Source: Isoetes taiwanensis
Taxonomy: Eukaryota; Streptophyta; Lycopodiopsida; Isoetales; Isoetaceae
DNA length: 64,000 bases
Reading direction: 5' to 3'
NCBI GenBank assembly: GCA_021234155.1
Contig: JAJEKV010000225.1
Coordinates: forward strand, 434,001-498,000
In this document: positions 11,226 through 37,879 of the stretch, piece after piece
How the letters are laid out: the number at the start of each line of letters is the position of its first letter
Position numbering within the stretch: the stretch's first letter is position 1
Made by a program: the position numbers and the translations under genes
Notes under the pieces: generated by a model
What the model saw: the letters and a program-made list of their open reading frames with translations, nothing else
What the model was told of the DNA's origin: nothing
Database searches by the model: none

Positions 11226-11739
11226 AAGTTGGGTATATTTAGATGATCAAAGAGAAGAAAAGAGCCAGACATAAACTAACATTTTAATCTTCAAATATGC
11301 TTTTTTGGGATACACTTCAGAGCTGCTTTGTTCTAATATGAAAATTCATGTATATTATTTGGTCAGATGCTTAGTACATTAATTTTCTAAGTCGTATTTA
11401 ATTAAAGTGGGACTCATTCCATTCCCATTTTTTTTCGGAACCCTGTTAATTTACATAAAAAGGAGCACCCCGACCCGAAAACTATCCGTAATTCGAATTT
11501 GTGTCTAAAACTCTGCATCCAAGCTTTGCTCCAGTTTTCTCTGGTTAGCGAGTCGAGAACAAGAACAATGCAACTGAAACAAAGGAAATTCATTAAAGAT
11601 TGAAACCAAAGATCTAGTTGAAAAAGAATTTTTATTAATAAATTGAATAGGTACAATGTATTTTACATCGGACGCAGAGACCATGGCGGTCTTGCTGTCA
11701 CTACAGTTACATCATCGTGGTAGGTGGTCCACCTTAGGG

Positions 11740-12199
11740 GATTAACTTGCGGCGCTTCTTCACGCCGACTGTAAGCCTTGGGGGCAACCTGAAGAGTGTG
11801 GAATGCCTCACGTGGAGGTGCCTCACGGAGCTACCGGGCCGACTGTCCACCCGACTTCTCCACTCGCCTCTCCCGCAGCCTTTCATCGAATATGCTCCTT
11901 CCCCAACCTCCGTGGATGTTATGCAATGCTTGCAAGATGCTTTGAGCTTCCTGGACTGTCTCTTTGTTCTTCGCCTGTTCTTTATCCCCAGGGTGTGCAT
12001 GGCGTCTGAATTCGCGAGTAACCTTATCCCAAAGGCCCGGCAAGAGTGTAGCGTGGGGGATGCGTGCTGTAGCGGTATTTCTTCCGCCTTGAGCGGGATT
12101 CAGGCCGCCTGGAGCGGTCTCGTGATGCCCGAGGCGGGATTTGTGCGGGTGTCGAATCTGTGCTGCGAACCCACGGAGCAAGGAGAGTATGATTAACAA
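11740..12199 (-). pseudogene. Third gene of element A, small basic protein
   Basis: The minus strand reads ATLLPGLWDKVTREFR, then a KEQAKNKETVQEAQSILQAL helix and HNIHGGWGRSI. The same protein is encoded in element B at 50262-50705. Conservation between the copies and a helical, charged composition suggest a real protein, but different frames are open in different parts, so both are frameshifted or spliced. I do not recognise the family. It lies downstream of the FCP1-like gene on the same strand, 430 bp away, and might be a 3' exon of that transcript. Confidence 0.45.
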
Positions 12200-12436
12200 T
12201 TACGGTGCCATTAGTCAAAACGAAGAAAAAAGAATGTTGAAATCAAATTACAATGGAGAACATTCATTCCATACAACCGCATCCAATGACGAGGAAGTAG
12301 TGTCTTTCTCATTTCGCGAAGTGGAGAAAGGCCCATAAAAAGTGAAAGTACAACCATTCTCATTAGAATATGGTTGCATCCAATCACACCTGGAAGCATC
12401 TGAATGGTTTTCATCAACGAGATTAACCGATTGCCT

Positions 12437-12459
12437 TTTCACTCGCGAGTCGAGAAAGG
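12437..12459. repeat. Palindrome copy (ACTCGCGAGTCGAGAAAGGCC)
   Basis: This is the one well-preserved copy in element A of the palindrome found in many copies in element B. A degraded copy is near 12306-12332 (TTTCGCGAAGTGGAGAAAGGCC) and a half copy near 12560. Confidence 0.75.
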
Positions 12460-12628
12460 CCCAGGAAACGCAATGTACAAGCATTATCATAATAGATTGT
12501 GGCTGCATCCAGTCACACAATCAAACATACAAATGGTCTCATCAACAGGACAAGCATGCCTTTCTCGACTCACATGTGTTCACGTTTGTTTACAATATTC
12601 ACACAGTTTGACTATCTGAAAGCAGAGG

Positions 12629-13283
12629 TCACTCTTCTTGTTCACCAAAATATTTGTCGTCCATAGCTTTCATGATCGCCTTGCTCTCTGGATCGGGTTC
12701 CGTGAGGCTCGGATAGTTCCTAATCACATCGGCGACAAGAATGGCAAAGAGGGATTCCGCCAAGACAGGACACAGTCCGAAGGACAACCACCTATCCGTC
12801 TCATACTCTTCAGGTCGATATGGCTTAGCAATGATTGTATTTTGCGCGTTATGATAGCACTTGTAGGCGGAGTCGTCTATGATCAGCGTGTTGTGTTTGC
12901 CATAGTCCTGGAATTGCTCATAAACCCTGTCCAGCCTTTTCACCATTATAGGCTTCCCCTTTGTGGTGGCTGGATCGAGGTCCGACACATGCTCGACCCT
13001 TTCGTTTCCCCAAACGAACTTGAACTTCAAAACTGGAAGGCCGAGAACACCAAGAACATTGACAATATTTTTCTTTGCCATACAAGACCATATGCCCACT
13101 TCGAATCCCCGTTCCAGGCACCATTCAACAATTTCCTTAGCTCTAGGCCTCGGATACACTATTTTATGCTCCGTTTTGGTCGGGATCTGCGAGGTGTTAA
13201 TCTCGGGGACGTCTTTATCGTGGTATACTGCAGCTAATACTCCATTGACGTCAAATATTACAAGCTTGGCGGGACCAGCTGGA
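12629..13283 (-). CDS. FCP1/NIF-like HAD phosphatase carried by element A
   Basis: The frame is open from about 13283 to the stop at 12629-12631, some 215 codons, with no stop or frameshift seen. Motifs in order: LVIFDVNGVL (HAD motif I; D-x-N in place of the D-x-D of FCP1), a YPRPRAKEIVEWC block, IWSCMAKKN (motif II Ser), VLKFKFVWG, KRLDRVYEQF with the motif III Lys region, and LIIDDSAYKC (motif IV Asp pair). That is the whole FCP1 homology domain. FCP1-type enzymes remove phosphate from Ser/Thr, classically of the RNA polymerase II CTD; Asn at the second Asp is common in plant FCP1-like proteins and may alter activity. No ATG is visible before the joint at 13283; in element B the frame starts with ATG at the matching place. 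This is the best preserved gene in element A. Confidence 0.75.
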
Positions 13284-13392
13284 TCCCAGTTTGTATGGTT
13301 TTATATGGTTCATATGGTTCATATGGTCATATTTGTGGTGTTTGGGGCTATATGGTTTTAATGTGAGCTTTTTCATTCAGGGAGCATGTGAG

Positions 13393-16263
13393 ATGAGTAA
13401 AATGGAGCCAAGGAAGTCCAGCAGAGACCATTGCCCTAGGCTCCAATGGAGGAAGATGGGTTGCCTTTTGTTGCACCCTTGCAACCAGACGGTATTTGCA
13501 GAGGGCATAATAACTGCAGTTGATCCATTTGATAGTGTGAATGATGAAAGGCTGGGAGATGAACATCTTGGAGTTGGCATTGTGAAGCTTCTTATCGAAG
13601 TTGATACAATCATGTCCCAGGGAAGCTCTAGTGATTGCATTGTGTGCTGGGGCTCTTTGGAGTCCCAAGCTCGAGTTGAGATGGCCAATTAGATATATTA
13701 CACACAAGAATGGAGATACTCTAGAATGCCCTACTAAACTACACACCCCAAGGCCCACCCAAGACCATGTGGAAGCTTTGGTGGTCGATGAGCATCCTTT
13801 GATCACAAGGAAGAGACGCTATGTTTTTCATAAAAGGCGTACCAAGGGTGCCCAAGAGGCCTAGAAGTGACAAATATTTAGAAAGGGTGGAAAGTATGGC
13901 ACCAACCAGAGAAAACCTAGAGGCAATTAGGGGTCAAGAGTGTTGCAACCTAGATTGCACAGTGCAGTACAATGTGGATGACCTCGTGCAGATAAGGTCC
14001 CAATACATTGGACAGCTTCAAAAAGATAGGATTAATTTCATTTACTCCTTGTGTAGGAATTCCAGCTATGATGAAAACAAAGGAAGGCTACTATATCAAT
14101 TGAGGGGCATGAAGGTATGTATGAGAGCATTGAGATGGATTCTTGGGGTGAGCAAGTCTTCATTTTACTGTGATCTTTGGGAGCAGGTTAGAAAAGGGCA
14201 CGCTTTGTTCCAACATGGTAATGCACTCACTTTGAAACCTAGAGCAAATACTCTCAAGGCCATTGCAGTCTTCGAGAGCTTTGTGAGATACATGGCTCAA
14301 TCTATGCCCCACAAGTCGAAGGTGAACGAGCACGGTGTGCGAGTGGTGCAAAGAGTGTTGCCACAACACTATATCCAAAAGGAGTGCCTTAAGGAGGTCA
14401 ACTCCATCCCGAAACCACCTTGGAGGTAGGCCTCTTTCTCAATCACATTTCAGCAAGTTATGGAGCACTCACTTCTCGGGGCGTGAGTGTCCTACAACAC
14501 ATGCCATTCTCAAAGTGCAACACTTGCATTCAACTCAAGGATACACTTGCATCAACCGCAATAGAGAAAGAAAGAATGGCAATTAGGGAGCAATTTGCAG
14601 ATCACCAAAGGGACCAAATATCATGTAGACAGTTGTATTGGCAAAGTGGATAACATTTTCCGAGATGCCGGACAAATTTTTGTGTATAATTCATGATAAG
14701 ATGGACCAACACAAGACTTTCTTGCCAAAGCTAGATCCTTTACCCAAGCGTTGTCAAAACGCTTTTCGGATGAAAGTAAGTCTCAAGGGTGTCTTAACAC
14801 ATGGTCATGGAACTGGAACATATGGTCATTTTGTGCTTGATCTATGGAGGGATGATCCAAACTTCCATGTGAGCTCTATTTTCAAGTGCTTGAGAACACT
14901 AGAGAAAGGATCGATAGAAGGGAGGAGGTATTCCCCTCAAAGACCCATTTTTGAGGCTTTGATGGATGATCAACCGCTTTGTTACCAAAGGTAGATAAAA
15001 AGCTCACATCCAAGGTGTCTAGTGAATCAAGGAGGACTTGGGATGATTTCCCTTACTTGAGAAAACCCTTCGAGGAGCTATGTGTTCAATTGGACAAACT
15101 GTTGGAAAGAAAACAAGAATAGATGGATGTTTGGGGCAATGTCATACTTGACAGCAGTGGGAGTATTCAAAGTTGTGAAAGTGGGATTCATGATGGTTGG
15201 GCATACGCATGATGATATAGATGGATTCTTTGGAACTTTCTCCACCAAGCTCAAGAGAGAAAACGTGACTAGTCTCCCTGAACTAATGGATGTGTTTGAG
15301 AGCTGCATTGACCCCAACCCAATGGCTTTCTTGATGGATGAGGTTGCAGATTGGAAATCATTTGTAGAGGGATACTTGCTAGATGGTAAGGACCAGTTGA
15401 CAGGACACACAAAGCCACTTCAATTCAAGTTTTGGGTTAGGGATGGAATACCAATCATGCAATATAAGTGGAGACCAGGTGACAAGTTGTGGATGCCTGT
15501 ACAAGGAATCGAGTTATGGCAAAGGGGTGCTGCTGGTGAAGTTCTCATTCCTAAAGGGCAGCCAAAACCACTACCTCCCTTCAAGACTGTCAAAGACTCT
15601 AGCCAACTAGTGAAGGGCATCAAGGATTACATAACGCACTGGGATGATGTTCGAAATGGAAAGCACACCTCCACTCTTAAGAAAAATCAAATGGACTCCC
15701 TAATCAAGTACTGGGAGAAAGTTGTGACATGCTTAGAAACTGAACAACCATGTGGGAGGAAGCTAAGAGACGGGTTCTTGCCAGAGTCAAGATGGGAGGG
15801 TTCTCAAGGAGCAAGCACGTCTAAGAATGTTCACTTGGGTCCTAACAAGGGTTCCAAGTGGTTTGTGGGAAGTAAGGCCTCAAAGCCGAAGTGGTTTGAT
15901 CTTCCTGAGTGGGATCCCTTTGAGGACATCAAGGAAGGATACTTTGTGCTAGTAAGGCCTGATGATGAGGACTGTCCAATATGGTTAGGGGTGGCACTCT
16001 CTGATGTAACCACCACTATGCCTCGATGGAGAGGAGTTGCGCCCCGATTCCAAATTCAATATTGGGAGCCCATTGGGAGACACAAGAAGGGCAACTTGAA
16101 GGAGCAATACACCGACTGGCCGGGAGAAGAAGTGGAGGGCAAATTATCTTTGATTCTCAAAGGAGGGAATTGGTGGAGTGTGTGGTATGGTCATATCCAG
16201 GTTCTCACACTGCAAAGGACAACACACACAAGATCCCAAAAAGGGAGATGGACAAAGCCATGA
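13393..16263 (+). pseudogene. DUF7869-type DDE-like transposase of element A (frameshifted)
   Basis: The reading begins at ATG 13393 (MSKMEPRKSS) and can be followed through frame changes near 13690, 13830, 14425, 14645 and 15090 to a stop at 16261-16263. Landmarks: CCNLDC near 13940; CEWCKECC near 14335; CNTCIQLK near 14517; HDKMDQHKT near 14692 (first catalytic Asp of the family); HGHGT near 14800; DNCxKENKNRW near 15095, thrown out of frame by one extra A; VGHTHDDIDGFF near 15199; and a C-terminal module with YFVLVRPDDEDCPIWLGVALSD (15940-16000). The MDQ-K-T, DNC-ENKNR and GHTHDDID set is that of DUF7869 proteins, which I read as a DDE-type nuclease (inference). Element B carries the same gene on minus. 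Confidence 0.7.
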
Positions 16264-16497
16264 GCAACCTCCATGCTATATCATTGTATGAGGGTAGATA
16301 ATATTGAGAAGCTTGAAAACTTTCTCAACTAGTGGTTTGTAAAATTTATGATGAAAACAAGTAACCCAATTCTTTGTGTGTGATCTGTAATTCTATTCAA
16401 GCAATCAATTCAAAAAAACATTTTATGGGATGTGAGTCCCATTTTCAGTCCGAGTCCCAAAATTCAAGATTTGTCCCACTTTAATTAAATACGACTT

Positions 16498-17276
16498 TTC
16501 TCCTTTGATTCTACTTAGGCAATTTCATTTTTTATTCTAGTTAGGCATTTTCATTGTACAAACAATAGAATAAAACTTTATTTTCCAGAGCAGCTCTTGT
16601 TTCTAGGCTTAAAGTTTCTTGTTTCTTTGAACTCCGCTCCAGCTAGATGCATTCTTTTTCTTTTAAAAACGTGGTCGATGATTCCATAAACAATTGGAGG
16701 ATGATTTACATTAAAAGAAAACTAAGCTTCCGTAAACAATTGGAGGATTATTTACATTAGAAGAAAACTAAGCTCCCGTCAACTCAAATAAAATTAAATG
16801 TTAGTAAGAGGTTCTAAAATAACATGCTTCAATGATACAATTTGGGCATATACATTCCAAAATAACTGATCTGTTACATAAAGCCTATGGCTTTAGGCAC
16901 CAAAAACGTTACACAATCTCTCTTAACAATGACAAAAGGATACATCCTTTTGGTTTTTCCGGGGTTCCGAAAACTTTTTGGATTTTTTCTTTAAGTTATT
17001 TTCCTAAGGTTTCAGAGCTTTTACCTGCCGGAAAAAAGTCTCCGTATGCCAAAAATCGGGTTGTGGCGTTTTCCTTAATTAAAAAATTGGCATTTTGGGT
17101 TATTTGTCCAGTTTTGGAGGATTTAGCGGATTCCTTATCTCCGCATCCTCGGCATGGAGGCCACAGAGATTCAAGGTTTCAGATACATCTGGTTGTCCGG
17201 GGAGCTTAAAAATTCGGTCGTCTTCTTGAGCCTTCAGCGTTTCTGCTGTTTTCAGATGTCTACATTATCTGTCAAG
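16498..17276. other. Spacer between elements A and 2
   Basis: No gene recognised. A direct repeat CCGTAAACAATTGGAGGAT-ATTTACATTA occurs at about 16685-16710 and 16730-16757. An open frame at 16832-17209 has no recognisable motif and is probably chance. Confidence 0.45.
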
Positions 17277-17551
17277 GGGTGTAAATATGATAATGCTACC
17301 CAAAAAGCACCGTCCGGACAAGTGCTTTAGGTGCTTGAGGTGCTTTTTACTCGATGAATTTTTGTTCAACGACCTCGGGGGTTGTTACTCCAGAAATAGT
17401 ATGCATGTTCCGGTTGGGGAGGGATCGATGACATGGATGTCCCCGCGCGAATTGCCAGAGCAATCCTCATGTTTGGCGGGATCTCAAGTTGGCGGGATTC
17501 TTGAGGAAAGTTTTCTTTCTTGGATTGTCATTCTTCCCAAGCTCCGTTATC

Positions 17552-20500
17552 ATGGCTGAAAATTCACTGGCAATTCTCAATTCTAATTCCAATCCCAATC
17601 CCAATCCCAATTCCAATCCCAATCCCAATCCCAATCCCAATCCCAATTCCAGTTCTCCATTGCACCTCCATTTTATGGCCAATTCTGAAAGCCTTGATGA
17701 TCAGAAGAGGAGAATTTATCTGGAATTTGAAGCCAACAGGAAAAGAGAATTGAGAAAGAGAATGAAAGAAAGGGAAAAGGAAAACATTCCACCAAACGAG
17801 AGGAAGAGAAAACAATGGCTTAGTGAAAGAAGATTGCAGGAACTCTCAAAAGAGTTAGATGATTCTTTTAATCACATTGTCAGGAACGTTTCTGAGGATT
17901 TGGATAAAGGGAAAATTCTTCAAAGACTTTTCAAGAGAAACAAACATTTGCCATTGCAAGCAGATGTACCAGATCCCAGGGATATTGCTATAATGAAAAC
18001 CATGATTGTGAATGTTAGAGAGACAATGCAGGCACAAAAAATGCAAAGAACAACTGATGTCCTCCAAGCAAGAAAGAGCACCCTTCAAATGGCAGCATCT
18101 TCAATAGGAGGGATTAATCAATATGCAATTTCAAGGGTTATATCTGTTCCAAGAAAAACTATTGCCATGGCATTTAGAAGACATATATTTGCAGAGTGTG
18201 AAGCTGGCCCTTGGTCAATATTTGGAAGGAAGAGAAGAAGTGACGCATTTTCAGCTGAAGAAATATCCACGGTGAGGAAGTTTTGGGATGAAAATACTAG
18301 AGTCTCACCTTATAAGAAACATGTGAGGAAGCATTTGGCTGAAAATGGTGATAAAATTGATCATCCTATTCATTTGCTAGAGACTACACAGGTAATAGTT
18401 TCGACCAGAAATTTGGAATGTTGTGCACTAATTCTTTCATTCACTTTATAAAATAACTAAATTTATTATTGTAATTGTGTTCAGGTACAATTGTACCTTG
18501 CTTTCAAGAAGGAACATCCTAATATAAAGATGTCCCAGCAGGCTTTTGAAAAACTAAAGCCAAGCTATGTAAGAAAACTTCAAGAAAGGGAGACTTGTTG
18601 TTGCCAATACCATTTGCACTTAGAATTTGCAAGGCAGGCCATCAACAATATGAGGACAGATCCTTATGGTGTTCATAAGGATTGTAAGTGTCAGTGCAAG
18701 GTTTGTGGACCAGGTCTAATCTGCATGGCTAAGGAGAACACCATCAGATCAAGTAGTGATTATTGGAGAATGGTGGTCTGCCAAAAGGATGAGAGTGATG
18801 AGTGGCATAAGCATGCGTGTCTGATGCAGACTTGTACAAAATGTGGTTTAAAGAAGTGAGTACAATGTTTCCTTTGTTTCAAACCTATAATTTTGCTTTC
18901 TATTTACCATGTTTGCTATAATGTATTGCAAACTGCCAACATGTCCTAAGGAGAGGAGTAAGAGCAGGACTTACAATGTGAATTGGAAAGTATTTGAGAA
19001 GGTAATGACTTTCAAATTAGATTGCAAAGTGCATTTAGTGACTTCATTAAATATGATTCAATCATATGACTTCCATATCAGGAGCTGATAAATTGGCCTT
19101 AACATGGCAGGTAGAAGTCCAAAGGAAGAAGACATCATCTAAGAAACCTCCAAAGGTTACAAAATTGGCCTACAAATTGGGTAGTCCTTTTGAATTTAAT
19201 GAGCATGCAAGAAAGACTTTGAAATCTTTTGTACCTCATAATTATAGAGCTCATTGGCAAGCCAAGGAATTCAGGAAATGCTTGGCAACACTTCAAGATG
19301 ATACCATTGTTTCTGTCATAGATTTTGCTGAAAATTATGGATTTAAGATCTAACAAGAAGCTCAATCCTGTCATTGGCATACTGACCAGGTGTCAATTCT
19401 AGTGCATATAACCTACAGGAGGATGAAAAAGGAAGAAGAAGAAGAAAGAAAAAAGAAAGAGGAAGAGAACTCATGCAAGAAGAACAAGAACTTGGCCAAA
19501 GAGAAAAGGAGACAAAGTCTCCAAGGTATTGTGAAGGAAACTCATTTCTATATTAGTGATGACAAATCACATGACACAGAATATGTCCAACATTGTCTAC
19601 AAATGCATGCTGATTGGTTGCAAAGTATTGGAGTTGAATATAAAAAACATGTGTTTTGGAGTGATGGATGTTCTTCACAATTCAAGTCTTCGAGACCATT
19701 CCATTTTCTTGGTAGATTTTATGGGAGAATGGGCAAGGATCTTCTATGGAATTTTTTTGCTAGATCACATGGGAAAGGTGAGCATGATGGTGCTGGAGCA
19801 GTTATAAAGCGGATACTAACTCAAGAGCAAATGAAGTATAATGGATGGAAACTACAGTGTGCAAAGGAGGTAGTTGCTTTTCTTAAATGGCACTTTGAAA
19901 ATCATCCATCTGATCATGACATCAAAAGGTATAATTTTGTAGTGTTTTGCAATTTTATTGCAGACATTTCAGCACTTCAAGCTAATCTTTATCCAAAGAC
20001 TTAAAGCACTTGCTTTTCATATTGTTACGGTATTTTCGGGAGGTAGAGTCTTCAAAGATAGATAGATCAGAAAGATTGGAATGCCATACTTTAAAGGGAA
20101 CTCAATTGCTCCACTGCATAAGACCATGTGACAAGGAGAACTCTTTGAAGGTAGCTTACAGACCTTTGTCATGCTTTTGCAACTACTGCATTCAATTTAA
20201 GTGGGACAAATGCATCAATATGAGTCAAAATTGGTGTTTGGGCAACCATTGAGTTGAGGTTGAAGGATCCTAAGAATACAGGTGATAGCAATGATTTGCA
20301 AGAAGATGACGAGTATGATGTTGAGGAAGAAGAAGAGGATGAAGATGATGTAATTAGTTCTATGATAGAAGTGGGTGACAATTTTGCTGTAAATGCTGAA
20401 GAAGGGAATGAAGAAGGGGTAGACTTTTATGTACTTAGATGCACTGAAGCAAAGAATACTTTGCTAGAAGATTATAAGGATGGATGGGGAAATGTATTTG

Positions 20501-20712
20501 GGATTGAAGAAGTTATTGTGTCAGGACATTATTATAAACAAATTGATGGTGGTCTAAGGTTTCAACTATTGCAGAATAAGCCAGTGGCCAGTGTATACAG
20601 CCATCTCGTTAGACTTTCTAAATTTGACATGATTGCAGATGAAGATGACTCAGACTTGTATTTCATGGCAGAAGAAACTTGCCAGCAGATCATTTCTACA
20701 GTTTCTACATAA
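17552..20712 (+). pseudogene. DDE-like transposase of element 2 (spliced, nearly intact)
   Basis: Start ATG 17552 (MAENSLAILNS), then a (Asn-Pro)n run and a long basic helix. Exon 1 ends at 18391 before GTAATA; exon 2 is 18485-18855 (donor GTGAGT) with Cys-rich CKCQCKVCG and CLMQTCTKCGLKK; exon 3 is about 18927-19001 (LPTCPKERSK). The catalytic exon runs from about 19082 with VIDFAENY (Asp 19321), SDGCSSQFK (Asp 19663) and SHGKGEHDGAG (Glu 19780, Asp 19786). A further intron probably follows 19926 (DIKR, GTATAA), then a YFREVESSKID block, a CFCNYC finger (about 20172), an acidic run (20300-20350) and DFYVLRCTEAK near 20430, ending at 20710-20712. One in-frame TAA (19351-19353) sits between two conserved motifs. 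Apart from that and the uncertain splice near 20000 the gene looks recent. Confidence 0.7.
17580..17650 (+). repeat. (CCCAAT)n hexanucleotide repeat
   Basis: About ten AATCCC/AATTCC units encode Asn-Pro and Asn-Ser pairs near the N terminus of the element 2 transposase. Confidence 0.9.
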
Positions 20713-21151
20713 GGTAATTTGTACAACATCATTTCTGTGTCAATCTGTCAAATTGAGGCATATCTGCAGTTTAAGACTGAAAACATGAATGAAAACTGAA
20801 AATGTGGCAAATTTTTTGAATGAAAATGTAACTGAATGAAAATGACAGCAGTTTAAGACTGAAAACATTTAAAAGAGAAACAATAATATACAACAATATG
20901 CATACATATCATCTGCAAGATTGAAAGTTTCTAAACAATTTCAGATATCACAAAATTGAGGCATATCTGCACTCGTATAGTATTGGCAATATAAGGTCTA
21001 TAATTTTTTTACATGCCTCTTGTCCAAAATTGAGGCAATAAGTACTTCTACTAAGAATCAGAACAAGTAAATATTCTTCAACACTTCAAATATTTCTGCA
21101 GTAAATATTCTTCAACGCCTCAAATATTTCTCTGCAATTTGCTCCAATCGA

Positions 21152-21867
21152 TCAAAACCGAAAAGCATTCCCAAAATCATCTACTAACCATTGAATTTGA
21201 CCCTTGCAGTAGAATTTGACCAATAGTTTATGCTCATCACCAATGTTCTTCTGAAATAGTGCATCGAGAACACCTAGGGATGTTCTTGTATAAGCTTCTG
21301 GCCTAGAATAGTGCTTCAATAGACCAGAAACATCATGAACCTCTGCAGCTTGTCTGAGTATTGGAGGCAAGTATGAATTTAGGATCTCATCTTGAGGATC
21401 ACTCATGAAAGTAGGCACCATGATAGAGGTAAATGGTGGGGACATAAAAGTCTTGGACACTTCATCATCTGCAAGAATAACATTATTTCCATACTGTGGG
21501 AAAGCTTCATACACTTTATGGAGTGGCTTCATGAAAACTGGGTTTGCAGATTCTAGAGGCCAATTGAAAGGCATCTCATCACAATATTTTTGGTCCCAAA
21601 AAAATACAAAATCTTTTTTGTTCATGGGACATAGAACATCAATAACTTCATGAACATTGAAGTTGTTCATGGAGGACCAAATTGCTAAGTCAAACAACCT
21701 GGAAGCTTCTTGCAAGAACCTATGCACACCTGGCCTCAACACAACCATTTTGTTAGTTGTAGATGATCTCAATAACTGAGAACTCAGTCTTCTCTTAATT
21801 GATTGGTTCTTCTATAAGTCTTTACGAGCACGCCATTCAGATCTAGTATTAATAGTTTCTTTTTCAT
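21152..21867 (-). pseudogene. FCP1/NIF-like HAD phosphatase carried by element 2
   Basis: An ATG at 21865-21867 starts MKKKLLILDLNGVLVKTYRR, giving HAD motif I in the plant D-x-N-G-V-L form. The frame breaks around 21800 and resumes at 21772 with VVLRPGVHRFLQEASRLFDL, AIWSSMNNFN (motif II), FFWDQKYC, FMKPLHKVYEAFPQ (motif III Lys), VILADDEVSK (motif IV, D-D), and a C-terminal alpha-helical tail to a stop at 21152. The overall order matches the element A protein, but sequence similarity is low, so the two genes were probably acquired separately or diverged long ago. The break may be an intron or a frameshift. It is transcribed toward the transposase gene, with about 440 bp between their 3' ends. 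Confidence 0.65.
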
Positions 21868-22189
21868 AGGTACGATTTTGCAATTCAAAGACACCTATTA
21901 AGCAAAAAGAACAATTCAATCAATGAATCAAAAGAAGAGTACAAGTGAAATGTAGAATTATTAACCTCGAAGTTACATTTGTAATTTGCAACTCGGTAGA
22001 CCTAACAGTCATAAAATTAATTAAGTGAATACAGCTTCAATGGTTCCACAAATATTGAATTCAAATTAAAAAGTCATAAATCTATGTCCTCATCACTTGG
22101 GACTACTTTCTTAAACCCTGAACATTAAAACATCATTTATGAATTAGTGCTCTCAAAGAGATGTTTGAATTTCCTCTAAGAGCATCCAT

Positions 22190-24000
22190 AATTGCTGCAA
22201 AATCAGTATTTATACCTTCATTGTGTACGCATTGTGTTAAAAAAGATAGGCTCCCTCAGACTTCACTGTTTTCACCTCAGTGGGATCTACACTTGCAATA
22301 TCATCAAGGGTTGTCATTATATTTTCCATAATTTCCTTTTCAACACCCTCTTCATTCACCTGCAAGTTTTCCTCCCCTTCTTCATTCAAATCAATGTGCA
22401 TTCTTCTTCTCAGTGGATACTTTCTTGTTTCCACAACTTTTTTCTTGTTAGTTCTCTCAACCTTTTTTCTTTTTCTTTGGTCCCTAACCCGGTGACTTCT
22501 TGCTACTTGAGTTCCCTTTCTTTTTGCATATTAACTCATCCTTCTTTGGCATTTCCTTTTTTTGTTTCTTCTTGGCTGGAGTGTCTAATATTTGACACTC
22601 AACTTCACTAGTATTCAGATCTGCCTCTGAATCCTCTCCAATTTTTTACCAGCTGCTTCTCAATTGTCTTGGGCTTGTCATCTTAGACTGATCCTGGAGA
22701 ATTTTCTGGCTCGTCCTTGCATGTCTCAACCTTCTCTTTGTGCTAGTAGAAGGGGACTTCAACCGATCAGCAAAACATCTTCAACATCGGGCCGGTAGTA
22801 TTTGATCCCAAACCGCCGAAGCTTTGAAAGCTACTTTAGGATCAAAAGAAGCAACCCTGCTCAATTCTGTTGGAGTACTCATACCAAGTTCAATATAAAG
22901 GTCTTGAGAATGTTCTGGTCCACATTTCAAACATCCGCCCTCTTTGAACAATGCAAAGCATACATTACATGATATTCATGTTCACATTCAAGAACTACGT
23001 AAATCTTGTAGTTATTATGAAAACTTAAACCACAAGCACTACAATAACTTTGCAAAAACACGGAAGCCTTCTTTTGATGGTGTTGATGCGTAAAAGGAGT
23101 CGGTGATTTGCATCAAAAGATGAAGGTTGCTTGCATGTTCTTTTTCTCGGCATTTATCTCAACATCCAATTGAATTAATTCAGCTTCCAATGCCTCCTTC
23201 TTCACAAGAAGATCGGGATCTCCAGGTTTGCAAACAGACTCCAAGGACTCACATGCATATTCTTCAAACATCAATTTCTTTTCTAAATCCCTGATTTCTA
23301 ACTCCACTTCCTTTGTAATAACCATAGCTCTCTTCTTGGCAATAGTAGACTTTAGCTTTTCCATACTGCTTCTTTTTTCAGACAAGGTTTTAAATATTTT
23401 ATCATTGGATTTCTCATCGTGACCGGACTAACAACAATATCTTGCATTTTCTTTCCCATCTCTGCCTTTTTATTCTCAAGCTTCCCTAAGTTTTCTGTTA
23501 CTAATGCAGGTTATGCTTCAAATTAGTCTGATCAAGACTAGGCTTAGGAATACCTTTGGAAGAAATAGCAGGCTTTGATTCAATTTCAGCTTTTGCTTTT
23601 GAACATTTTTTTTCGGCCTGCGTTTCTTGTACATCATAACCTGTGCCCCATATGAAGCCCAATTTATCTGATGACCTTCAGGATCTAGCAGTCCTTCAGG
23701 GCAATTTTCCCATGCGAAGGCAAGAGCCAATTGTTTTCTTACTTCATTATTAGAAACACCATCTGGGTAAAACACACTCAATAAGCTTTCCAATTTTCTC
23801 CTCAAATGTGGTTGAACAAAGGCAACCTTGATTGCAGACTTCGACTTTGAATTAAAACTTTTTACATAAACGGATTCCCATTGTTCCTTAAGTGATTTGG
23901 GTTTGCTAGCCAATTGTATTTCATATGGGGCTGCAGACCCTCATTTGACAACCCGTGCATCTCAAAAAAATCCTCCGCTGTTACTGCTTCTTCTACCATG
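22190..24000 (-). pseudogene. Coiled-coil / RING-like protein of element 2 (frameshifted)
   Basis: Start ATG 23998-24000 (MVEEAVTAEDFFEMHGL). The frame shifts near 23925 and continues with ASKPKSLKEQWESVYVKSF, ALAFAWENCPEGLLDPEG and INWASYGAQVMMYKKRRPKK (23518-23900). Then comes a charged coiled coil (23113-23385), a Cys/His finger with YCSACGLSF and CEHEYHVM and, one frame over, CLKCGPEHSQ (22915-23046), and an acidic/basic tail (22237-22434) with RKYPLRRRMH. The order and several motifs match the minus-strand gene of element 1. The final finger Cys is a Tyr in the open frame (VMYALHC). The role is unknown; a zinc-binding partner of the transposase or an E3-like factor are both possible. Confidence 0.6.
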
Positions 24001-24410
24001 TTGCTTGATTCACGACGATTAGTTCCGGATAAACAATCTATATTGTGCGCCGGAAAGGAATTCGAAACTCTACTAAAGGATTTGCAAAAGGAATGAAACA
24101 GGAAATTGAGGGGAAGTTTCGCGCGCGAGAACTGAGGTGGTTTTTTTTTTCTTTGGAATGAAGGCAACCGAGGTGCTTTAGGTGCTAAGTGCTTTCGCGT
24201 TTTTTTGGGTAGCATTACCATATTTACACCCCAAGGTATTGTGTTTGCCATATAAATTTCTTTGCTTTTGATTTCTGGAAGAGATGACCATTGATAATTA
24301 TAGCACACAGGGAGCCGATTTGGAGACTTTGCCTCTTTTCGATTTTTAGATCAGCATGCATGATTGTGGGCAAAACAATATCGGGATGTAGTTTTTCCCT
24401 ATGATTTCAG

Positions 24411-26866: not shown

Positions 26867-27070
26867 CTTTCAAGTCGTATTTAATTAAAGTGGGACAAAT
26901 CTTGAATTTTGGGACTCGGACTGAAAATGGGACTCACACACCATAAAAGAAATTTCTGAATTGATTGCTTGAATAGAATTACACATGACACACATAGAAT
27001 TGGGTTACTTGTTTTCCTCATAAATTTTACAAACCACTAGTTGAGATAGTTTTCAAACTTCTCAATATTA

Positions 27071-29990
27071 TGTGCCCTCATACAATGATATAGCATGGAG
27101 GTTGCTCATGGCCTTGTCCATCTCCCTTCTTGGGATCTTGTGTGTGTTGTCCTTTGCAACGTGAGAACTTGGATATGACCATACCACACACTCCACCAAT
27201 TCCCTCCTTTGAGGGTCAGCATAATTTGCCCTCCACTTCTTCTCCCAGCAGTCAGTGTATTGCTCCTTCAAGTTGCCCTTCTTGTGTCTCCCAATGGGCT
27301 CCCAATATTGAATTTGGAATCCAGGACGCAACTCCTCTCCATCAGGCATAGTGGTGGTTACATCAGAGAGTGCCACCCCTAACCATATTGGACAGTCCTC
27401 ATCATCGAAGGCCTTACTAGCACAAAGTATCCTTCCTTGATGTCCTCAAAGGGATCCCACTCAGGAAGATCAAACCACTTCGGCTTTGAGGCCTTACTTC
27501 CCACAAACCACTTGGAACCCTTGTTGGGACCCAAGTGAGCATTCTTAGACGTGCTTGCACCTTGAGAACCCTCCCATCTTGACTCTGGCAAGAACCCGTC
27601 TCTTAGCTCCCTCCCACATGGGCTGTTCAGTTTCCAAGCATGTCACAACTTTCTCCGAAGACTTGATTAGGAGTCCATTTGATTTTTCTTAAGAGTGGAG
27701 GTGTGCTTTCCATTTGAACATCATCCCGGTGTGTTATGTAATCCTTGATGCCCTTCACCGGTTGGCTAGAGTCTTTTTGTCTTGAAGGGAGGTAGTGGTT
27801 TTGGTTGCCCTTTAGGAATGAGAACTTCACCAAAAAGCACCCCTTTGCCACAACTCGATACCTTGTACAGGCATCCACAACTTGTCACCGGTCTCCACTT
27901 ATATTGCATGATTGGTATTCCATCCCTAACCCAAAACTTGAACTGAAGTGGCTTTGTGTGTCCTGTCAACTGGTCCTTACCATCTAGCAAGTATCCTTCT
28001 ACAAATGATTTCCAATCGCAACCTCATCCATCAAGAAAGCCATTGGGTTGGGGTCAATGCGACTCTCAAACACATCCATTAGTTCGGGGGGAGAGTGGTC
28101 GTTTTTCTCTCTTGAGCTTGGTGGAGAAAGTTCCAAAGAATCCATCTATATCATCATGCATTATGCCCAACCATCATGAATCCCACTTTCACAACTTTGA
28201 ATACTCCCACTTCTTTGTCCAAGTATGACATTGCCCCAAACATCCATCTATTCTTGTTTTTTTTCCAACAGTTGTCCAACTGAACACATAGCTCCTCGAG
28301 GCGGTGATTTCTCAAGTGGGGAAATCATCCCAAGTCCTCCTTGATTCACTAGACACCTTGGATGTGAGCTTTTTTTATCGCCTTTGGTAACAAAGCGGTT
28401 GATCATCCATCAAAGCCTCAAAATGGGTCTTTGAGGGGAATACCTCCTCCCTTCTATCGATCCTTTCTCTAGTGTTCTCGGGCACTTGAAAATAGAGCTC
28501 ACATGGAAGTTTGGATCATCTCTCCATAGATCAAGCACAAAATGACCATATGTTCCAGTTCCATGACCATGTGTTAATACACCCTTGGACTTACTTTCAT
28601 CTGAAAAGCGTTTTGACAACGCTTGGGTAAAGGATCTAGCTTTGGCAAGAAAGTCTTGTGTTGGTCCATCTTATCATGAATTATACACAAAAATTTGTCC
28701 ATTTTGCATCTCGAGAAAATGTTCTCCACTTTGCCAATACAACTGTCTACATGATATTTGGTCCCTTTGGTGATCGCAAATTGCTCCCTAATTGCCATTC
28801 TTTCTTTCTCTATTGCGGTTGATGCAAGTGTATCCTTGAGTTGAATGCAAGTGTTGCACTTTGAGAATGGCATGTGTTGTAGGACACTCACGCCCCAGAA
28901 GTGAGTGCTCCATAACTTCATGAAATGTGATTGAGAAAGAGGCCTACCTCCCAATAGTTTCTAGGATGGAGTTGACCTCCTTAAGGCACTCCTTCGGATA
29001 TAGTGTTGTGGCAACACTCTTTGCACCACTCGCACACCAGGTGCTCGTTCACCTCGACTTGTGAGGCATAGATTGAGACATGTATCTCACAAAGCTCAAG
29101 AAGACTGCAATGGCCTTTAGAGTATTTGCTCTAGTTTTTCAAAGTGAGTGCATTACCATGTTGGAACAAAGTGTGCCTTTTCTAACCTGCTCCCAAGATC
29201 ACGTAAAATGAAGACTTGCTCACCCCAAGAATCCATCTCAATGCTCTCATACATACCTTCATGCCCCTCAATTGATATAGTAGCCGTCCTATGTTTTCAT
29301 CATAGCCGGAATTCCTACACAAGAAGTAAATGAAATTAATCCTATCTTTTTGAAGTCTGTCCAATGTATTGGGACCTTATCCGCACGAGGTCATCCACAT
29401 TGTCTTGCCTTGTGCAATCTAGGTTGCAACACTCTTGTCCCCTAATTGCCTCGGGTTTTCTTTGGTTGGTGCCATACTTTCCATCCTTTCTAAATATTTG
29501 TCACTTCTAGGCCTCTTGGGCACCTTTTGGCTGCCTTTTATGAAAGACATAGCGTCTCTTCCTTGTGATCAAAGGATGCTCATCGACCACCAAATCTTCC
29601 ACATGGCCTTGGGTGGGCCTTGGGGTGTGTAGTTCAATAGGGGCAATCTAGAGTATCACCATTCTTGTGTGTAATATATCTAATTGGCCATCTCAACTGA
29701 GCTTGGGACTCGGAGACCACGAGCACACAATGCAATCACTAGAGCTTCCACGGGACATGATTGTATCAACCCGATAAGAAGCTTCACAATGCCAACTCCA
29801 AGATGTTCATCTCCCAGCCTCTCATCATTCACACTATCAAATGGATCAAACTGCGGTTATTATACCCTCTGTAAATACCGCCCAGTTTGCAAGGGTGCAA
29901 CAAAAGGCAACCCATCTTCCTCCATTGGAGCCTAGGGCAATGACCTCCTTTGGACTTCCCCTGGCTCCATTTTACTCATCTCACATGTTC
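27071..29990 (-). pseudogene. DUF7869-type DDE-like transposase of element B (frameshifted)
   Basis: Homologous along its whole length to the gene of element A, on the opposite strand. It carries CNTCIQLK, IHDKMDQHKT (28640-28680), then LDNCWKKNKNRW near 28250, where the frame around the Asp is correct, unlike in A. After that come a broken GHTHDDID region near 28160, DGIPIMQYKWRP (about 27900), ALSDVTTTMP and QIQYWEPIGRHKKGNL (27250-27370). Many one-base shifts split it into frames of 60-126 codons. A and B are damaged at different places, so a common intact ancestor can be inferred. The 5' end faces the AT-rich spacer at 30000. Confidence 0.7.
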
Positions 29991-29999
29991 TGAATGAAA

Positions 30000-30290
30000 A
30001 AGCTCACATTAAAACCATATAGCCCCAAACACCACAAATATGACCATATGAACCATATAAAACCATACAAACATATTAAATATAATCATATTATATCATA
30101 CAACCATATTAACTAAAATCATACAACCATATTAACTAAAATCATATAACCATATTAAAGCATACAACCACACTCATTCTAAACCATATGTAAACATTGT
30201 AAACATATATAACCATTGAAACTATTCAACCATTGAAACCTTATTAAATACATAAGATAACATATATAAACATATAACCTACCCTTTCAT
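30000..30290. repeat. AT-rich ACCATAT(A) repeats, divergent promoter region
   Basis: Repeats of AACCATATTA and CATACAACC fill this stretch. It lies upstream of the minus-strand transposase gene. The matching part of element A (13290-13360, TATGGTTCATATGGTT) is much shorter. It could hold promoter or binding sites (inference). Confidence 0.5.
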
Positions 30291-31470
30291 ATCTTGTCAT
30301 GTCCACGTGGCCTCTTGAGAGGTGAAACCGTGGCCATGTCAACAATCCGCTGCTTGCTTTCGTCATGGAGGGCATGGCCCTGCGTGACAATGGTTTTATT
30401 ATTGCACTTTTACGAGGTTCGGGGTGCGGCCGTAAGTCTTTGCACCCTCTTCCTCTCCCCGACCATTCTTCCTCCCTGTTTTTCTCTGATCACTCATCCT
30501 CCCCCTGTTTCCTTAGAGCCAGCTTTACCCGTCGGTGATCGATCGGTAGCGGCGATTCAAGGCCATCTTATGTGATGGCTTGGTCGACGGATCGGGGCGC
30601 TTCAGGCCCGAAGTTCTCATGATTCATTGTTCGAGCGGGCGTTGCTACTGAGAAGAAAGTGAGGCCCTTTTTAGTCTTTGCTTTTTAGTTTTACGTAAGT
30701 CCTTTAGTGCATTTTTACTTATATTACATTTGTTAGAGGCTCTTATTGATCCACGATACAATTCTGACCCAGAAATCCTTATTCACGCTTTGCCAACGAC
30801 TATACCCACATGGAAGGCGAACTTCGGGAAGCCTCCTCCTCATCAAACAAATCTTCGGGTATGTTTTTGTAATATCATACCCTTTTTAATCTCATTTTCT
30901 GCATCTTGTTCTCCTTTGTTCTCTGTACTCTTCTCTCTTGTTCTCTGTTTTTCTCATTGATCTCACTAAATCTCTTCATTTATCATTTTTCCCTTTGTAT
31001 TGTTTTCTGTTTTTGTTATCTTTTTCTTGCTTGTGGTTGAATTGAATACATTATGCGAGGCACAAGTGAGAATAGTCGTTAGAGTAGTAGCAAGCAACCA
31101 GAGATAGAAATCATCGAGAGACCGGGTGTTAGGAACTAAGATATTGCGAGCATTAAGAACATAACTAGGAATGTCTTTCTCCGGCCAAGAACTAAGAATA
31201 GGAATTGCTTCCACGGAATCTCCATTTCTAACTCACGGCAAATCCCGCTGCGGGGAGACATGCGAGAAGGGAGTGGCGAGTTGGGAATACTTCACTTGCC
31301 AGCAGTCCGGGGAAGTACAGGGGCCTTCTTCTCGACTACAGTCGAGAACTCCCGATTTCAGGCGCAGAAGAGGGAGTGTACACTCGGGTTGTTGGCGGTT
31401 GAGGGATTCTCGACTCGCGATTAGGGGATTGCACCGACTACCCAATGTCTTCACATTCTTTAGAACCACT
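30291..31470. other. Element B cargo, left part, no gene recognised
   Basis: Several short open frames on both strands, none with a motif I recognise. The stretch has no counterpart in element A. Confidence 0.35.
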
Positions 31471-31477
31471 CTTGCAG

Positions 31478-32600
31478 CCTTCTCGACTCGTGAGTCGAGA
31501 ATGTGATACCGCCAATGGCTCTTTGTGCGGTCGCGAGTGCCTCCACCGATCGAGCCACTCTCCTTGAACCATGCTCATCGAATATTGCGAAGAGGACTGG
31601 CTCGGCGGGTGGAGGCCTCGGCGACTAACCGCGAAGTTGCTGGCCGCTTTCTCGACTCGTGAGTGAAAATCCAGGCTCTAGTGCACTCTAGAGCTGGCAC
31701 AGAGCGATCTTAACCACTCTCCTTCTATCTTCCGGACATTGCGAAGGGAAGTGGTTTTCACTGCGGCAGGCCAACTCTTAGCAACCCAATTCTCTGTGTG
31801 TGGCGCGATGGCCTCTACCCAATCAAAGACCGTCTCGCCGAACCATCTTCGCCGAATATTGCGAAGGGGATGGGCTCGATTGGGTGGAGGCCTCGGCGAC
31901 TAACCTGAAGGTGCTTGCCGCTTTCTCCGACTTTCGTGAGTGAGAAACGTTTCCAGCTACGCCAACCTCTAGAGGACTGTAAGAATCTTAACAACTCTCC
32001 TTCTATCTTCCACGGACATTGCGAAGGGAAGTTGTTTTGATCTGTGAGGCCAACTCTTAGCAACCCACGTGGAAACCACAGAGCTTGTTGTATGCATTCT
32101 CGGCCAAGGAAGTGGGAATGCCTTACCCAAACCAAGCACTCCATGTGTACCATCCAGGAGTTCTCGATGGCTAAGGCATTCTCGACTTTGGCGTAGTCGA
32201 GAATATAGACAAGCCAACTCCAATGCCGTGGAAACCATAGAGCTTGTTGTGCGCATTTCGCCTCGCGAAGGTGGGGAATGCCTTAACCAACGAACGCACT
32301 TTCGGTGTACTAACCGGAGTTCGGATGGCAAAGGCATTCGACTTGCGAAGTCGAGAATGTAGACAACGGCGATAACGATCGCATTCGGACTGGGTGGAGG
32401 CCTCTACAACTAACCACGGGGAAACCACGGAGAGGAAGCCAAGGCTTGCATTCTCTACAAATCACGCACTTTGTATTCTCTTTTTTAGTCCCAAGTGCCT
32501 CTAGCCTCATCTGAGCCACTCTCCCTTGAACCATCTTCCTCGAATATTGCGAAGAGGAGTGGTTCGACTGGGTGGAGGCCCCTCAGACTAACTACAAGAG
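31478..32600 (+). repeat. GC-rich complex repeat array with palindromes
   Basis: Units spaced about 280-290 bp contain CGAATATTGCGAAG, GGGTGGAGGCCTCGGCGACTAAC and GCCAACTCTTAGCAACCC (copies at 31577/31855/32530, 31604/31888/32573, 31769/32049). Between them are palindrome copies at 31478-31501, 31649-31668, 31921-31946, about 32173-32205 and 32333-32358. Each unit also has a short hairpin, such as CCACT...AGTGG around 31714-31753. No coding potential is evident. Confidence 0.7.
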
Positions 32601-33786
32601 GATGCATTTGAACCGCTTCTCTGGGCCTTAGACCTAGCCTGATCTATGTACAACATTCCAAGAAAACACTCCATGAAAAAAGACACCTAAAAGCGGGCTG
32701 TTCATTAACCCCGATCCATTGTTTCCTTGCTTAGGAGCATCTCTCAACCCGGAGAGTAAATCATCTCGAAGCTGAAAAATCTTTGGACAAAGAAACAATG
32801 AATCCGTCGAGCTTATCGGCCGGTTCCATTATTTAAACACGAGGCGGCATGTTCAACAAAGCGAAATAACATAGGCATCTACGAAACTCACCTCTTCTTG
32901 CGGTAATTCCTTGGGCCTTTGTATCCGCGGATCCGCGACCTCACCTAGAGTCTTTGCTTCTTCTGTCGGTCTCTTCAAGAGTGTATTTCGCATCTAATAC
33001 TTGTATCAGCTGCGATTTCGCGTATCCCCGTTCCATGGCGCCCTTGATGTAGAGTTCCGTATCGGCGGCTCCTCTCGCTTCCTACCTTAGCTCCGTGCTC
33101 ATCGATCAAATCAAGCTGCTTGCAATAGGGCCAGCGGTCGGGAAAAACACATATGCAAATTATTTGTTAGCGGCTTACGCATCGGCGCCATTCCGAAGTC
33201 GCTAACGGTCGATGCTCCCCTCCGAACTTCGAGGTCCCCAATGCATGAGGGAAGATAAACTAGGCTCGCTCACTTAGTCCCTTGATGTGATTAAATTTGA
33301 AATAGTGTTTGGGCGGGCTAAAGCCTACCGTCTTTGTACCCTTAGCAGCTTCTTTTCATAAATGATTGCATGTCCTTAACTTCAAATTAAAGAACCGCGC
33401 TAGATCTTTTTACATGCAGTCCTAAAAACTCACAACGCGGAGGAGACTTAATTCTGAGAGGGGTCGAAGAGGATGAGAGGGCATAGAGACATGACTCCGT
33501 CAAGAAAGAAGCGGAGGATGCTTCTACAGCGGCAACAAGAAGAAGAAGACAAACACCCGGGTGAGCTCGAGGTTTTTCTTTTGTCGGAATACCTTATGCT
33601 GATCCATCCTTTCTTCTTGCGGCATTCACCTCGGACTCCTTTGGTGATCAGCGGCGAACTCCATTCTTAGTCATCGAGGGATTTGGAGACGAGCTTCTTG
33701 AAACAGCAAAGCAGATTCTTGGTGGTATGTCGAGGTATCGACAAGTGGGAAGGAGAAAGATCTGTTTCTACACCAAAGGGACAAGA
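32601..33786. other. Element B cargo next to the Gypsy insertion
   Basis: GC-richer than its surroundings. A short plus-strand frame (33473-33670) begins MRGHRDMTPSRKKRRML, a basic stretch, and a further frame is cut by the Gypsy element at 33791. I recognise no domain. It would be continuous with 45810 onward in the empty site. Confidence 0.35.
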
Positions 33787-33791
33787 AGAGC

Positions 33792-36223: not shown

Positions 36224-36338
36224 TTTTGGAGGTCCTAGAGATCTTTACACGGAAATTGAACTCAATGGCACCAAGGAAGCTTTTGAGTCTGGCTGAACCA
36301 CACGGGGAGACAAATCAACCAGATTTGGTAGGGTAAGC

Positions 36339-37460
36339 ATGAGAGTGGCTACCAGATCTACCACTAATGCTACAAATACTCCCAACTTGCCTATTCCTCC
36401 ACCGGCTCCTCTCTATCGGTCTACAAATATTACAAATATTTCCTCTGTGCCCTCTTCTTCACAAATTCATAAACTTTTTTTGAACGGATCAACACCTTTC
36501 GGTCTGTTCCTCCATCAGCACCTTATCATTTTGAGTTGACTATACTGTTTCCCCCCTTGCTATGATTCTTCCATGAATGCCAACCATTTTCTAAAAACTT
36601 TGAAGACTATTATGAAGAACATGGGAGAAAAGAAGGGTTCGAGGTTTGCGAGAATTCATCAAATGCATGAAGGGTGATGAGGCCGGATCTTGGCTCGATT
36701 TTGAGCTGTCTATAGGTACCAAAGGGGATGAATTGGAACACAAGTTTCTATCAAGGTTTGGTAAGGCTACTTCACCCCGGGATCTTGTCTTTGAACTCAA
36801 CTCATTTTCCATTAGACCTGGTGAGAGTGTAAGCGGTATGTGGAGAGATTTAATTCTTATTTGCTAGTGTGTAACAGGAATCGGGTTACTCATCCAACAT
36901 TGCACCTAGTTGCTTCCTTTATCGAGGAGGTTTGATGTCTAGACCTAGGATCTATAGGAAGTTATTAAAATTACAAAAATTTGGTGAGTTGGATTCTATC
37001 CATAAAACATTTGTAAAATTTGTAGATCTGGCGAACTATTAAGCTATCTTCGATGAAGAGATCAGAGATCCATTTTATCCTCCTCATCATGGGCCTGAAC
37101 ATGATTTACATTTTGCTAATGCTGCTCCCTGTTTATGCGATAAAAAGAGAAGAAGAAGTCCAAGGCTGAAGAATTGGATCCTCATGTTTTGAGATGAAAT
37201 CTGAGATCGATAAAGTGTCGAGGCACTTTTGGAGATTACCAAACAACTTCTTGAATTAAAAAGCGGTAAAGATGCCCCACCTCTGAATGCACAAACTGTG
37301 GTAAACCTTACCATAGAGGCTGGCGGTGTTTTGCAAGGCAATGTCCTAAGTGTCATAGAAGAGGTCACTTTGGTAGAGAATGTCTGTTTGCTCTTTTTGC
37401 AAGGAAATAGGTCATGAGGAGAAGTATTGCATGTTAAAGGCTTATTTTGAAAAACAAGAT
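36339..37460 (+). pseudogene. gag with two CCHC zinc knuckles
   Basis: The capsid-like part (36646-36867) reads FIKCMKGDEAGSWLDFEL, then KFLSRFG and IRPGESVSGMWRDL, as in the retrotransposon gag domain. In the same frame, 37288-37383 encodes two adjacent zinc knuckles, CTNCGKPYHRGWRC and CPKCHRRGHFGREC, each C-x2-C-x4-H-x4-C. Stops between the two parts break the frame. Gag forms the virus-like particle in the cytoplasm and binds the element RNA. Confidence 0.75.
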
Positions 37461-37879
37461 AAAAGGTAAACAAATGTCAAATATAAGTTTTATTGAGACT
37501 TGTGCGAGGAGAACGGGGAAGAGCAAGATGTTATGGTTGTGTGGAGACCGTGCGAGCTCATCCAAATGCATCTGGGGAGTTACGTTCCACCTCATAAGGT
37601 AACATTTCAATCAGATCCTCAGAATATAGCTCCTCCTCTGCTCAAAGGTATAAGCAGAAAGATTACGAGTTGGATGAATTTGAATTACTTATGAAAAATT
37701 CTAAGGTTCTGTGGATTTATTAACTCTGAGAATTGCACCATCATCTGGGGAAAAGTTGATCAAAAGCACTCCGGATATTGAAGAGGTTCTTTGCTGAAAC
37801 CTGCAACAATATTTACGTGGCTTTACTGAGCAAGCCCGAAGATCAGTGCTTTTACTTGTAGTGCTACTATAGGAACTTC

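What the first reader, a model, noticed from the sequence alone, without database searches (positions are those of the whole stretch)
12629..21867. FCP1-like phosphatase genes inside two different DNA transposons
Seen: element A (12629-13283, open frame), element B (49182-49855) and element 2 (21152-21867) each carry an FCP1-homology HAD domain with DVNGVL or DLNGVL and a D-D motif IV. The A/B and element 2 genes are only distantly alike, and the elements have different termini and transposases. Two independent or very old associations of a phosphatase with a transposase suggest use, for example to act on RNA polymerase II CTD, on the transposase, or to counter silencing. The function is inference; the D-x-N motif could also mean a non-catalytic binder.
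Basis: partly seen in the sequence, partly recalled or inferred. Interest (0 to 1): 0.85.

Follow-up and report, generated by a model that had tools for sequence, protein, structure and literature searches.

The report
Transposons carrying an altered phosphatase gene
In what appears to be a quillwort genome, three families of jumping DNA each carry a phosphatase-like gene with one catalytic residue changed, and selection has conserved that gene, which suggests that the transposons use it, perhaps against their host.

Summary
The phosphatase-like (NIF, PF03031) genes are real and lie inside DNA transposons; the assembly size fits Isoetes taiwanensis. Elements A and B are one family: B is an end of a 24.2-kb copy that also carries the DUF7869 transposase. 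Element 2 is a second family with other ends, another transposase and the opposite gene order. A third family (X), outside the window, is built like element 2. Genome-wide, NIF and transposase are linked in fixed orientation (A 31 of 150 listed copies, element 2 75 of 141, X 68 of 150; chance predicts under 1 each). In A, dN/dS is about 0.3, and adjacent non-coding DNA diverges 3.5 times faster than non-synonymous sites. The eight DxNGVL groups form one clade apart from the sampled DxDxTL NIF genes; the nearest solved relative is UBLCP1, not FCP1/SCP. The second motif-I aspartate is asparagine in 22 of 22 A copies. I read this as an old accessory gene shared by transposons with unrelated transposases, probably acting on a host phosphoprotein as a binder or slow phosphatase. 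The target is unknown. None of the three window copies is intact. Location and selection are shown; function is inferred.

The parts
11389..16497 (.). Element A: 5.1-kb copy of the DUF7869 transposon family A, shorter than the 11-12.7 kb class of the family
   Evidence: Same TIR at both ends (11389-11413 and 16473-16497); flank TTCT on both sides; size classes
12632..13300 (-). NIF gene of element A, 5'-truncated
   Evidence: PF03031 E 1.2e-10; no ATG before motif I
15064..16263 (+). DUF7869 transposase frame of element A, divergent to the NIF gene
   Evidence: PF25273 E 9.2e-32; linkage 31 of 150 in this orientation
17277..24231 (.). Element 2
   Evidence: TIR GGGTGTAAATATGRTAATGCTACCC at both ends, CAAG on both sides
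17555..20712 (+). Transposase of element 2, in several frames (exons); no Pfam match over the cut-off
   Evidence: 150 listed genome matches of one exon; 75 of 141 NIF-2 places lie next to one
21155..21867 (-). NIF gene of element 2, broken near its start
   Evidence: PF03031 E 1e-15 for 21155-21811; second match piece with motif I at 21811-21858
26872..51065 (.). 24.2-kb copy of family A, with nested insertions
   Evidence: TIR at both ends, CTTTC on both sides; 94% and 87-88% identical to the two halves of A
26872..30071 (-). Transposase half of the 24.2-kb copy
   Evidence: 94.0% identical to 13300-16497
33785..45803 (.). LTR retrotransposon nested in the 24.2-kb copy (two long direct repeats 94.7% identical)
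49182..49855 (+). NIF gene 'B' of the 24.2-kb copy, broken
   Evidence: tblastn match with 7 stops and 23 gaps, second piece 89% identical

Best explanation
A clade of NIF-fold proteins with DxNGVL in motif I ('NIF-N') is an old accessory gene of at least three DNA-transposon families in this genome: A (DUF7869 transposase), 2 and X (a second transposase type). Elements carry a transposase and NIF-N between their TIRs and amplify both. Shown here: location, linkage, copy number, selection, one clade. Inferred: the protein works in trans. Because one clade serves elements whose transposases share no detectable similarity, its partner is more likely a common host phosphoprotein (in silencing, transcription or protein turnover) than the transposase. 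With the usual general acid/base Asp replaced by Asn and the other catalytic residues kept, it most likely binds, or turns over slowly, a phosphorylated target and so lowers host control of the element.
For: Linkage in fixed orientation: A 31 of 150, element 2 75 of 141, X 68 of 150, under 1 expected each. 18 of 20 fetched A copies run from the NIF stop into the TIR and then into different flanks. dN/dS 0.30 in A and 0.34 in element 2, higher in the closest pairs; non-coding K 0.10 against dN 0.029; 188 amino-acid differences against 815 expected from non-coding divergence. One clade apart from sampled DxDxTL genes. No detectable similarity of the two transposase types. A precedent of one accessory gene in 11 transposon lineages: PMC12730594 (passages and Introduction read).
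Against: No expression, biochemistry or interaction data. Copies for dN/dS were the best protein matches, which lowers dN (bounded, roughly). The transposase comparison used thin profiles, so distant kinship is possible and would weaken the host-partner argument. Other plants could not be searched. Groups V, W and Y have the motif but no transposase was found beside them; only W was looked at, 3 kb downstream. About half or more of the listed NIF places have no listed transposase nearby (118 of 150, 66 of 141, 79 of 150), though the lists are truncated.
Confidence: 0.55

Rival explanations
1. NIF-N is a cofactor of transposition itself: it binds or dephosphorylates the element's own transposase or transposition complex.
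For: Tight, fixed gene pairing in each family, with transposase and NIF of a family matched and few cross pairs (3 of 150, 3 of 141, 0 of 150).
Against: One NIF clade serves two transposase types without detectable similarity. Fixed pairing follows from sharing an element, whatever the target.
Confidence: 0.3
2. NIF-N is an active FCP1/SCP-type phosphatase that acts on the RNA polymerase II CTD to favour transcription of the element.
For: NIF/FCP1 superfamily by Pfam; nucleophile Asp, motif II Ser, motif III Lys and motif IV Asp pair kept in at least 21 of 22 A copies.
Against: The second motif-I Asp is Asn in 22 of 22 A copies and in the other DxNGVL groups read. Best solved relative UBLCP1, E 3.4e-15, against 1.9e-5 for SCP1 and 2.3e-3 for FCP1. 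A UBLCP1 segment finds NIF-N copies in this genome but 0 of the 33 best NIF places.
Confidence: 0.07
3. NIF-N is a passenger: a host gene caught by chance and multiplied with the element, without use to it.
For: None of the three window copies is intact. DNA transposons do catch host genes (recalled).
Against: Purifying selection in A and element 2; the gene is kept in three families at 25-31% protein identity to one another with many open frames; the sampled host-type genes are not its close source.
Confidence: 0.05

Closest known systems
[quoted passage not shown] passages and the Introduction read)
   Same: One accessory-gene family inside several lineages of DNA transposons, with transfer between lineages inferred in that paper and possible here; presumed action against host control
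   Different: Different protein (NIF phosphatase fold with altered motif I), plant host, other transposases (DUF7869 and one without a Pfam model)
VANDAL family MuDR elements of plants with an anti-silencing protein (as cited in PMC12730594)
   Same: Plant DNA transposon with a second protein that counters silencing
   Different: Unrelated protein and transposase; no silencing role tested here
UBLCP1 (3shq), the NIF-fold phosphatase with a ubiquitin-like domain
   Same: Nearest solved relative of the NIF-N profile, E 3.4e-15; sister in a domain tree
   Different: Separate UBLCP1-like exons exist in the genome at up to 60% identity; NIF-N has Asn in motif I and no ubiquitin-like domain was found in one A frame

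Membership tests
NIF/FCP1-homology family PF03031 | Score over Pfam's curated cut-off | tested here: met
   Window frames 41.8 and 58.2 bits, other groups 40.3-79.9, cut-off 21.8
Active FCP1/SCP/UBLCP1 phosphatases | DxDx(T/V) motif I with two Asp (recalled definition) | tested here: not met
   DxNGVL in all DxNGVL groups read; N in 22 of 22 A copies
Active FCP1/SCP/UBLCP1 phosphatases | Phosphatase activity | not testable with these tools
   needs purified protein
UBLCP1 | Ubiquitin-like domain before the NIF domain (recalled) | tested here: not met
   Only NIF found by Pfam in the 327-aa frame L025:7278-8258 at E up to 0.1; upstream exons were not excluded
[quoted passage not shown]
   TSDs read by eye: TTCT (A), CTTTC (24.2-kb copy), CAAG (element 2); the length in family A is unsettled
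DUF7869 proteins (PF25273) for the family-A transposase | Score over the curated cut-off | tested here: met
   110.6 bits, cut-off 26
Accessory-gene DNA transposons of the TET/JBP kind | Accessory gene inside complete elements of more than one transposase lineage | tested here: met
   Families A and 2 between TIRs, X by linkage only; two transposase types without detectable similarity
Accessory-gene DNA transposons of the TET/JBP kind | Effect on host silencing of the element | not testable with these tools
   needs expression and methylation experiments

The most novel reading that the evidence does not exclude
A transposon-borne clade of phosphatase-fold proteins, altered at the general acid, has moved between unrelated DNA-transposon systems as a host-antagonist module: it traps a phosphorylated host regulator (for example one normally handled by UBLCP1), so that the element escapes silencing or its proteins escape turnover. 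It would be the phosphatase counterpart of transposon TET/JBP genes.
Probability: 0.25. Interest if true: 0.9.

Novelty: new variant of a known kind. Interest (0 to 1): 0.72.

Why it matters
Transposons that carry non-transposase genes show which host pathways limit them. A phosphatase-fold gene kept by selection in families with two kinds of transposase points to a phosphorylation-based step in the control of plant DNA transposons, which can be tested directly. It also warns that hundreds of NIF-phosphatase-like frames in such a genome are transposon genes, not cellular ones.

Tried and rejected
Recent capture of a sampled host-type NIF gene: rejected, since the DxDxTL genes fall in another clade and the UBLCP1-like exons of the genome are much nearer to animal UBLCP1 than NIF-N is.

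A second coding gene between NIF and the TIR in family A: rejected, since its frames differ from copy to copy. This let me use that stretch as the non-coding control.

DUF7869 partners for the NIF groups outside A and 2: 1 of 74 remaining weak-NIF places lies within 40 kb of a listed DUF7869 hit, on the same strand, taken as chance. Against the first A and element-2 transposase lists the same 74 gave 1 place, 17 kb away. X was then tied to its own transposase. W: no such transposase in 3 kb downstream, where a frame with the reverse-transcriptase-like YADD motif lies (recalled motif). V and Y: not looked at.

Structure of NIF-A from one sequence: useless (mean pLDDT 33.6); no fold search was run. 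Viral relatives: 29 stretches matched the patterns, none encodes a relative. Literature: seven searches for transposons with such a gene, for DUF7869 or for related transposon papers found no report of it; others returned nothing, the others were seen as listings only; the library is open-access PMC. Two more searches found the Isoetes genome paper and the TET/JBP paper.

Rows dropped: one search uses 17 copies (16 fetched plus the window's) and one search compares the window copy with the same 16 of 20 fetched (L028, L033, L036 without a usable end by the exact string, L040 with a codon gap). Tree: 27 rows, with 3 of the family-A copies plus the window's and one diverged copy; 22 rows. Linkage used listed places only, not all candidates: NIF-A 150, TPase-A 104, NIF-2 141, TPase-2 150, NIF-X 150, TPase-X 150; second pieces of one match were merged for TPase-A and NIF-2.
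Full report
WHERE. The window is C124:434001-498000 of a 1,658,258,908-base assembly in 1110 contigs. The Isoetes taiwanensis assembly is 1658.30 Mb in 204 scaffolds and 909 unplaced contigs (PMC8566536, passages read). I take the host to be that species; this is inference from size, and the contig counts differ by three.

OBSERVATION. Two open frames match PF03031 (NIF): 12632-13300(-), E 1.2e-10, and 21155-21811(-), E 1e-15. They are 25% identical. A and B are one family. Element A (11389-16497) has the TIR AAGTCGTATTTAATTAAAGTGGGAC at both ends. B is the left part of A seen again at the end of a 24.2-kb copy (26872-51065) that begins with the same TIR and the transposase half, 94% identical to A, and is interrupted by an LTR retrotransposon. 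Element 2 (17277-24231) has the TIR GGGTGTAAATATGRTAATGCTACCC and CAAG on both sides. None of the three window genes is intact: A lacks its 5' part, element 2 is broken near its start, and B has many breaks and G-D in place of D-D in motif IV.

COPY NUMBER. The A end occurs 1661 times forward and 1709 reverse with up to 2 mismatches; the reversed control gives 0. From the first 100 listed places 30 elements pair up: 12 of 3.5-5.8 kb, 12 of 11-12.7 kb, 6 longer. The element-2 end occurs 317 and 305 times, control 0. From 100 listed places 31 pair up: 5 of 271-282 bases, 16 of 1.6-1.7 kb, 10 longer. None of the 21 short ones holds a listed NIF or transposase hit; of the 10 long ones 6 hold a NIF, 5 a transposase, 4 both and 3 neither. 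NIF queries gave 150 (A), 154 (element 2) and 150 (X) scored matches out of 6860, 4526 and 4586 first-look candidates; these are truncated.

THE GENE IS PART OF THE ELEMENT. Of 20 A copies fetched with long flanks, 18 run from the NIF stop into the TIR after 1.1-1.3 kb and then into different flanking DNA; one of the 18 (L032) has a one-base gap in the TIR; in L028 and L033 no end was found. Linkage by coordinates: NIF-A with TPase-A 32 of 150 within 40 kb, 31 upstream on the opposite strand (0.75 expected for uniform placement); NIF-2 with TPase-2 75 of 141 within 15 kb, all downstream on the opposite strand (0.38 expected); cross pairs 3 of 150 and 3 of 141 against 0.41 and 0.71 expected. 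A third family, X, came from the Pfam search. Its transposase is 53% identical to that of element 2 in the best-matching exon, in the same convergent order. NIF-X with TPase-X: 71 of 150 within 15 kb, 68 downstream and opposite (0.41 expected), and 0 of 150 with either other transposase. The ends of X were not determined.

SELECTION. NG86 dN/dS: A 0.30 (22 copies, 231 pairs), 0.51 in the closest class (38 pairs) and 0.27-0.29 in the two most distant (92 and 21 pairs). Element 2: 0.34 (8 copies, 28 pairs), 0.79 in the closest class (15 pairs) and 0.29 at dS over 0.4 (7 pairs, each with the copy L052). For 17 A copies (136 pairs) with the neighbouring 3' non-coding stretch: K 0.10, dS 0.086, dN 0.029. 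That stretch shows no shared frame. The copies were the best protein matches, which lowers dN. Against this: the window copy differs from 16 others at 188 codons by amino acid where non-coding divergence predicts 815 changes; each of the 16 is below expectation, and the largest single p-value times 6860 candidates is 5e-4 (Poisson, rough). Relaxed in young pairs and constrained in old ones is the pattern of a gene needed by the lineages that keep moving.

WHAT THE PROTEIN IS. Ten sequences from eight groups share, beyond general NIF features, DxNGVL, an IW motif II (IWS/T, M in nine of ten), a motif III K and a DD followed in most by K (the row L052 starts after motif I). In A, D17, N19, G20, S72, K121 and D143 are kept in 22 of 22, D142 and K147 in 21. 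They fall apart at 100/100 from nine DxDxTL sequences of the same genome (that these nine are cellular genes is assumed); the program flags long branches. By profile the best solved chain is UBLCP1 (3.4e-15), then CTDNEP1 (7e-6), SCP1 (2e-5), TIM50 (7e-4) and FCP1 (2e-3). In a tree of the shared domain part UBLCP1 is sister to the clade (100/98) and the clade excludes it (99/97). Searching the genome with the UBLCP1 segment gives 94 matches: 12 in split UBLCP1-like exons at up to 60% identity, and 82 others, 33 of them in my NIF lists and 49 new; none is among the 33 best NIF places, of which I read the motif in 8, all DxDxTL. So these are not recent copies of the sampled host-type genes.

MECHANISM. 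Asn for the second motif-I Asp removes the usual general acid/base of NIF phosphatases (recalled enzymology). The other catalytic residues are kept, so a slow enzyme or a phosphopeptide binder is likelier than a relic. One clade serves two transposase types without detectable similarity (thin profiles), so a common host partner is likelier than the transposase. That step is inference.

KNOWN OR NEW. Kojima 2025 (PMC12730594, passages and Introduction read) describes TET/JBP genes in 11 lineages of fungal DNA transposons with transfers between them, and cites VANDAL and SET-bearing transposons. The present case works like that class with a different gene and host. Seven literature searches found no earlier report.

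LIMITS. No expression or biochemistry; no other plant genomes; groups V, W and Y not placed in elements (W has none of the tested transposases in 3 kb downstream; V and Y not looked at); TSD length of family A unsettled (TTCT in A, CTTTC in the 24.2-kb copy); the structure job gave no usable model.

Noticed in passing
window 31333-31497 and 46815-50152: Eight palindromes of the type CGACTCGCGAGTCG lie inside the 24.2-kb copy of family A; possible protein-binding sites or hairpins.
   Followed up: no
window 25532-26872 and 51176-51247: The 24.2-kb copy sits in a stretch of host DNA that is itself duplicated (25532-26229 against 26337-26872, 91%), so an unfilled relative of the insertion site lies beside it.
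   Followed up: partly
L046, L048, L049, L055: NIF groups Y, W and V also have DxNGVL but no transposase was found next to W in 3 kb, where a YADD-bearing frame lies; V and Y were not looked at.
   Followed up: partly
G000:C911:1459120 and 48 other places: Forty-nine UBLCP1-like NIF places that are in none of my NIF lists: probably further NIF-N groups.
   Followed up: no
G000:C1064:1995820-2001708: Four UBLCP1-like exon pairs about 1.8 kb apart, each with a TGA in the second exon match: a tandem array of apparently broken copies.
   Followed up: no
G000:C1018:22.9-26.8 Mb: A cluster of well-scoring NIF places on one contig; those read are DxDxTL (L019, L021, L023): a local expansion of host-type NIF genes.
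   Followed up: no
G000: DUF7869 gives 9902 first-look candidates and 150 scored matches; the top ones are mostly not near NIF-A places (2 of 150), so other large DUF7869 families exist without this gene nearby.
   Followed up: partly
window 7716-8212: Tandem repeat with a unit of about 58 bases.
   Followed up: no
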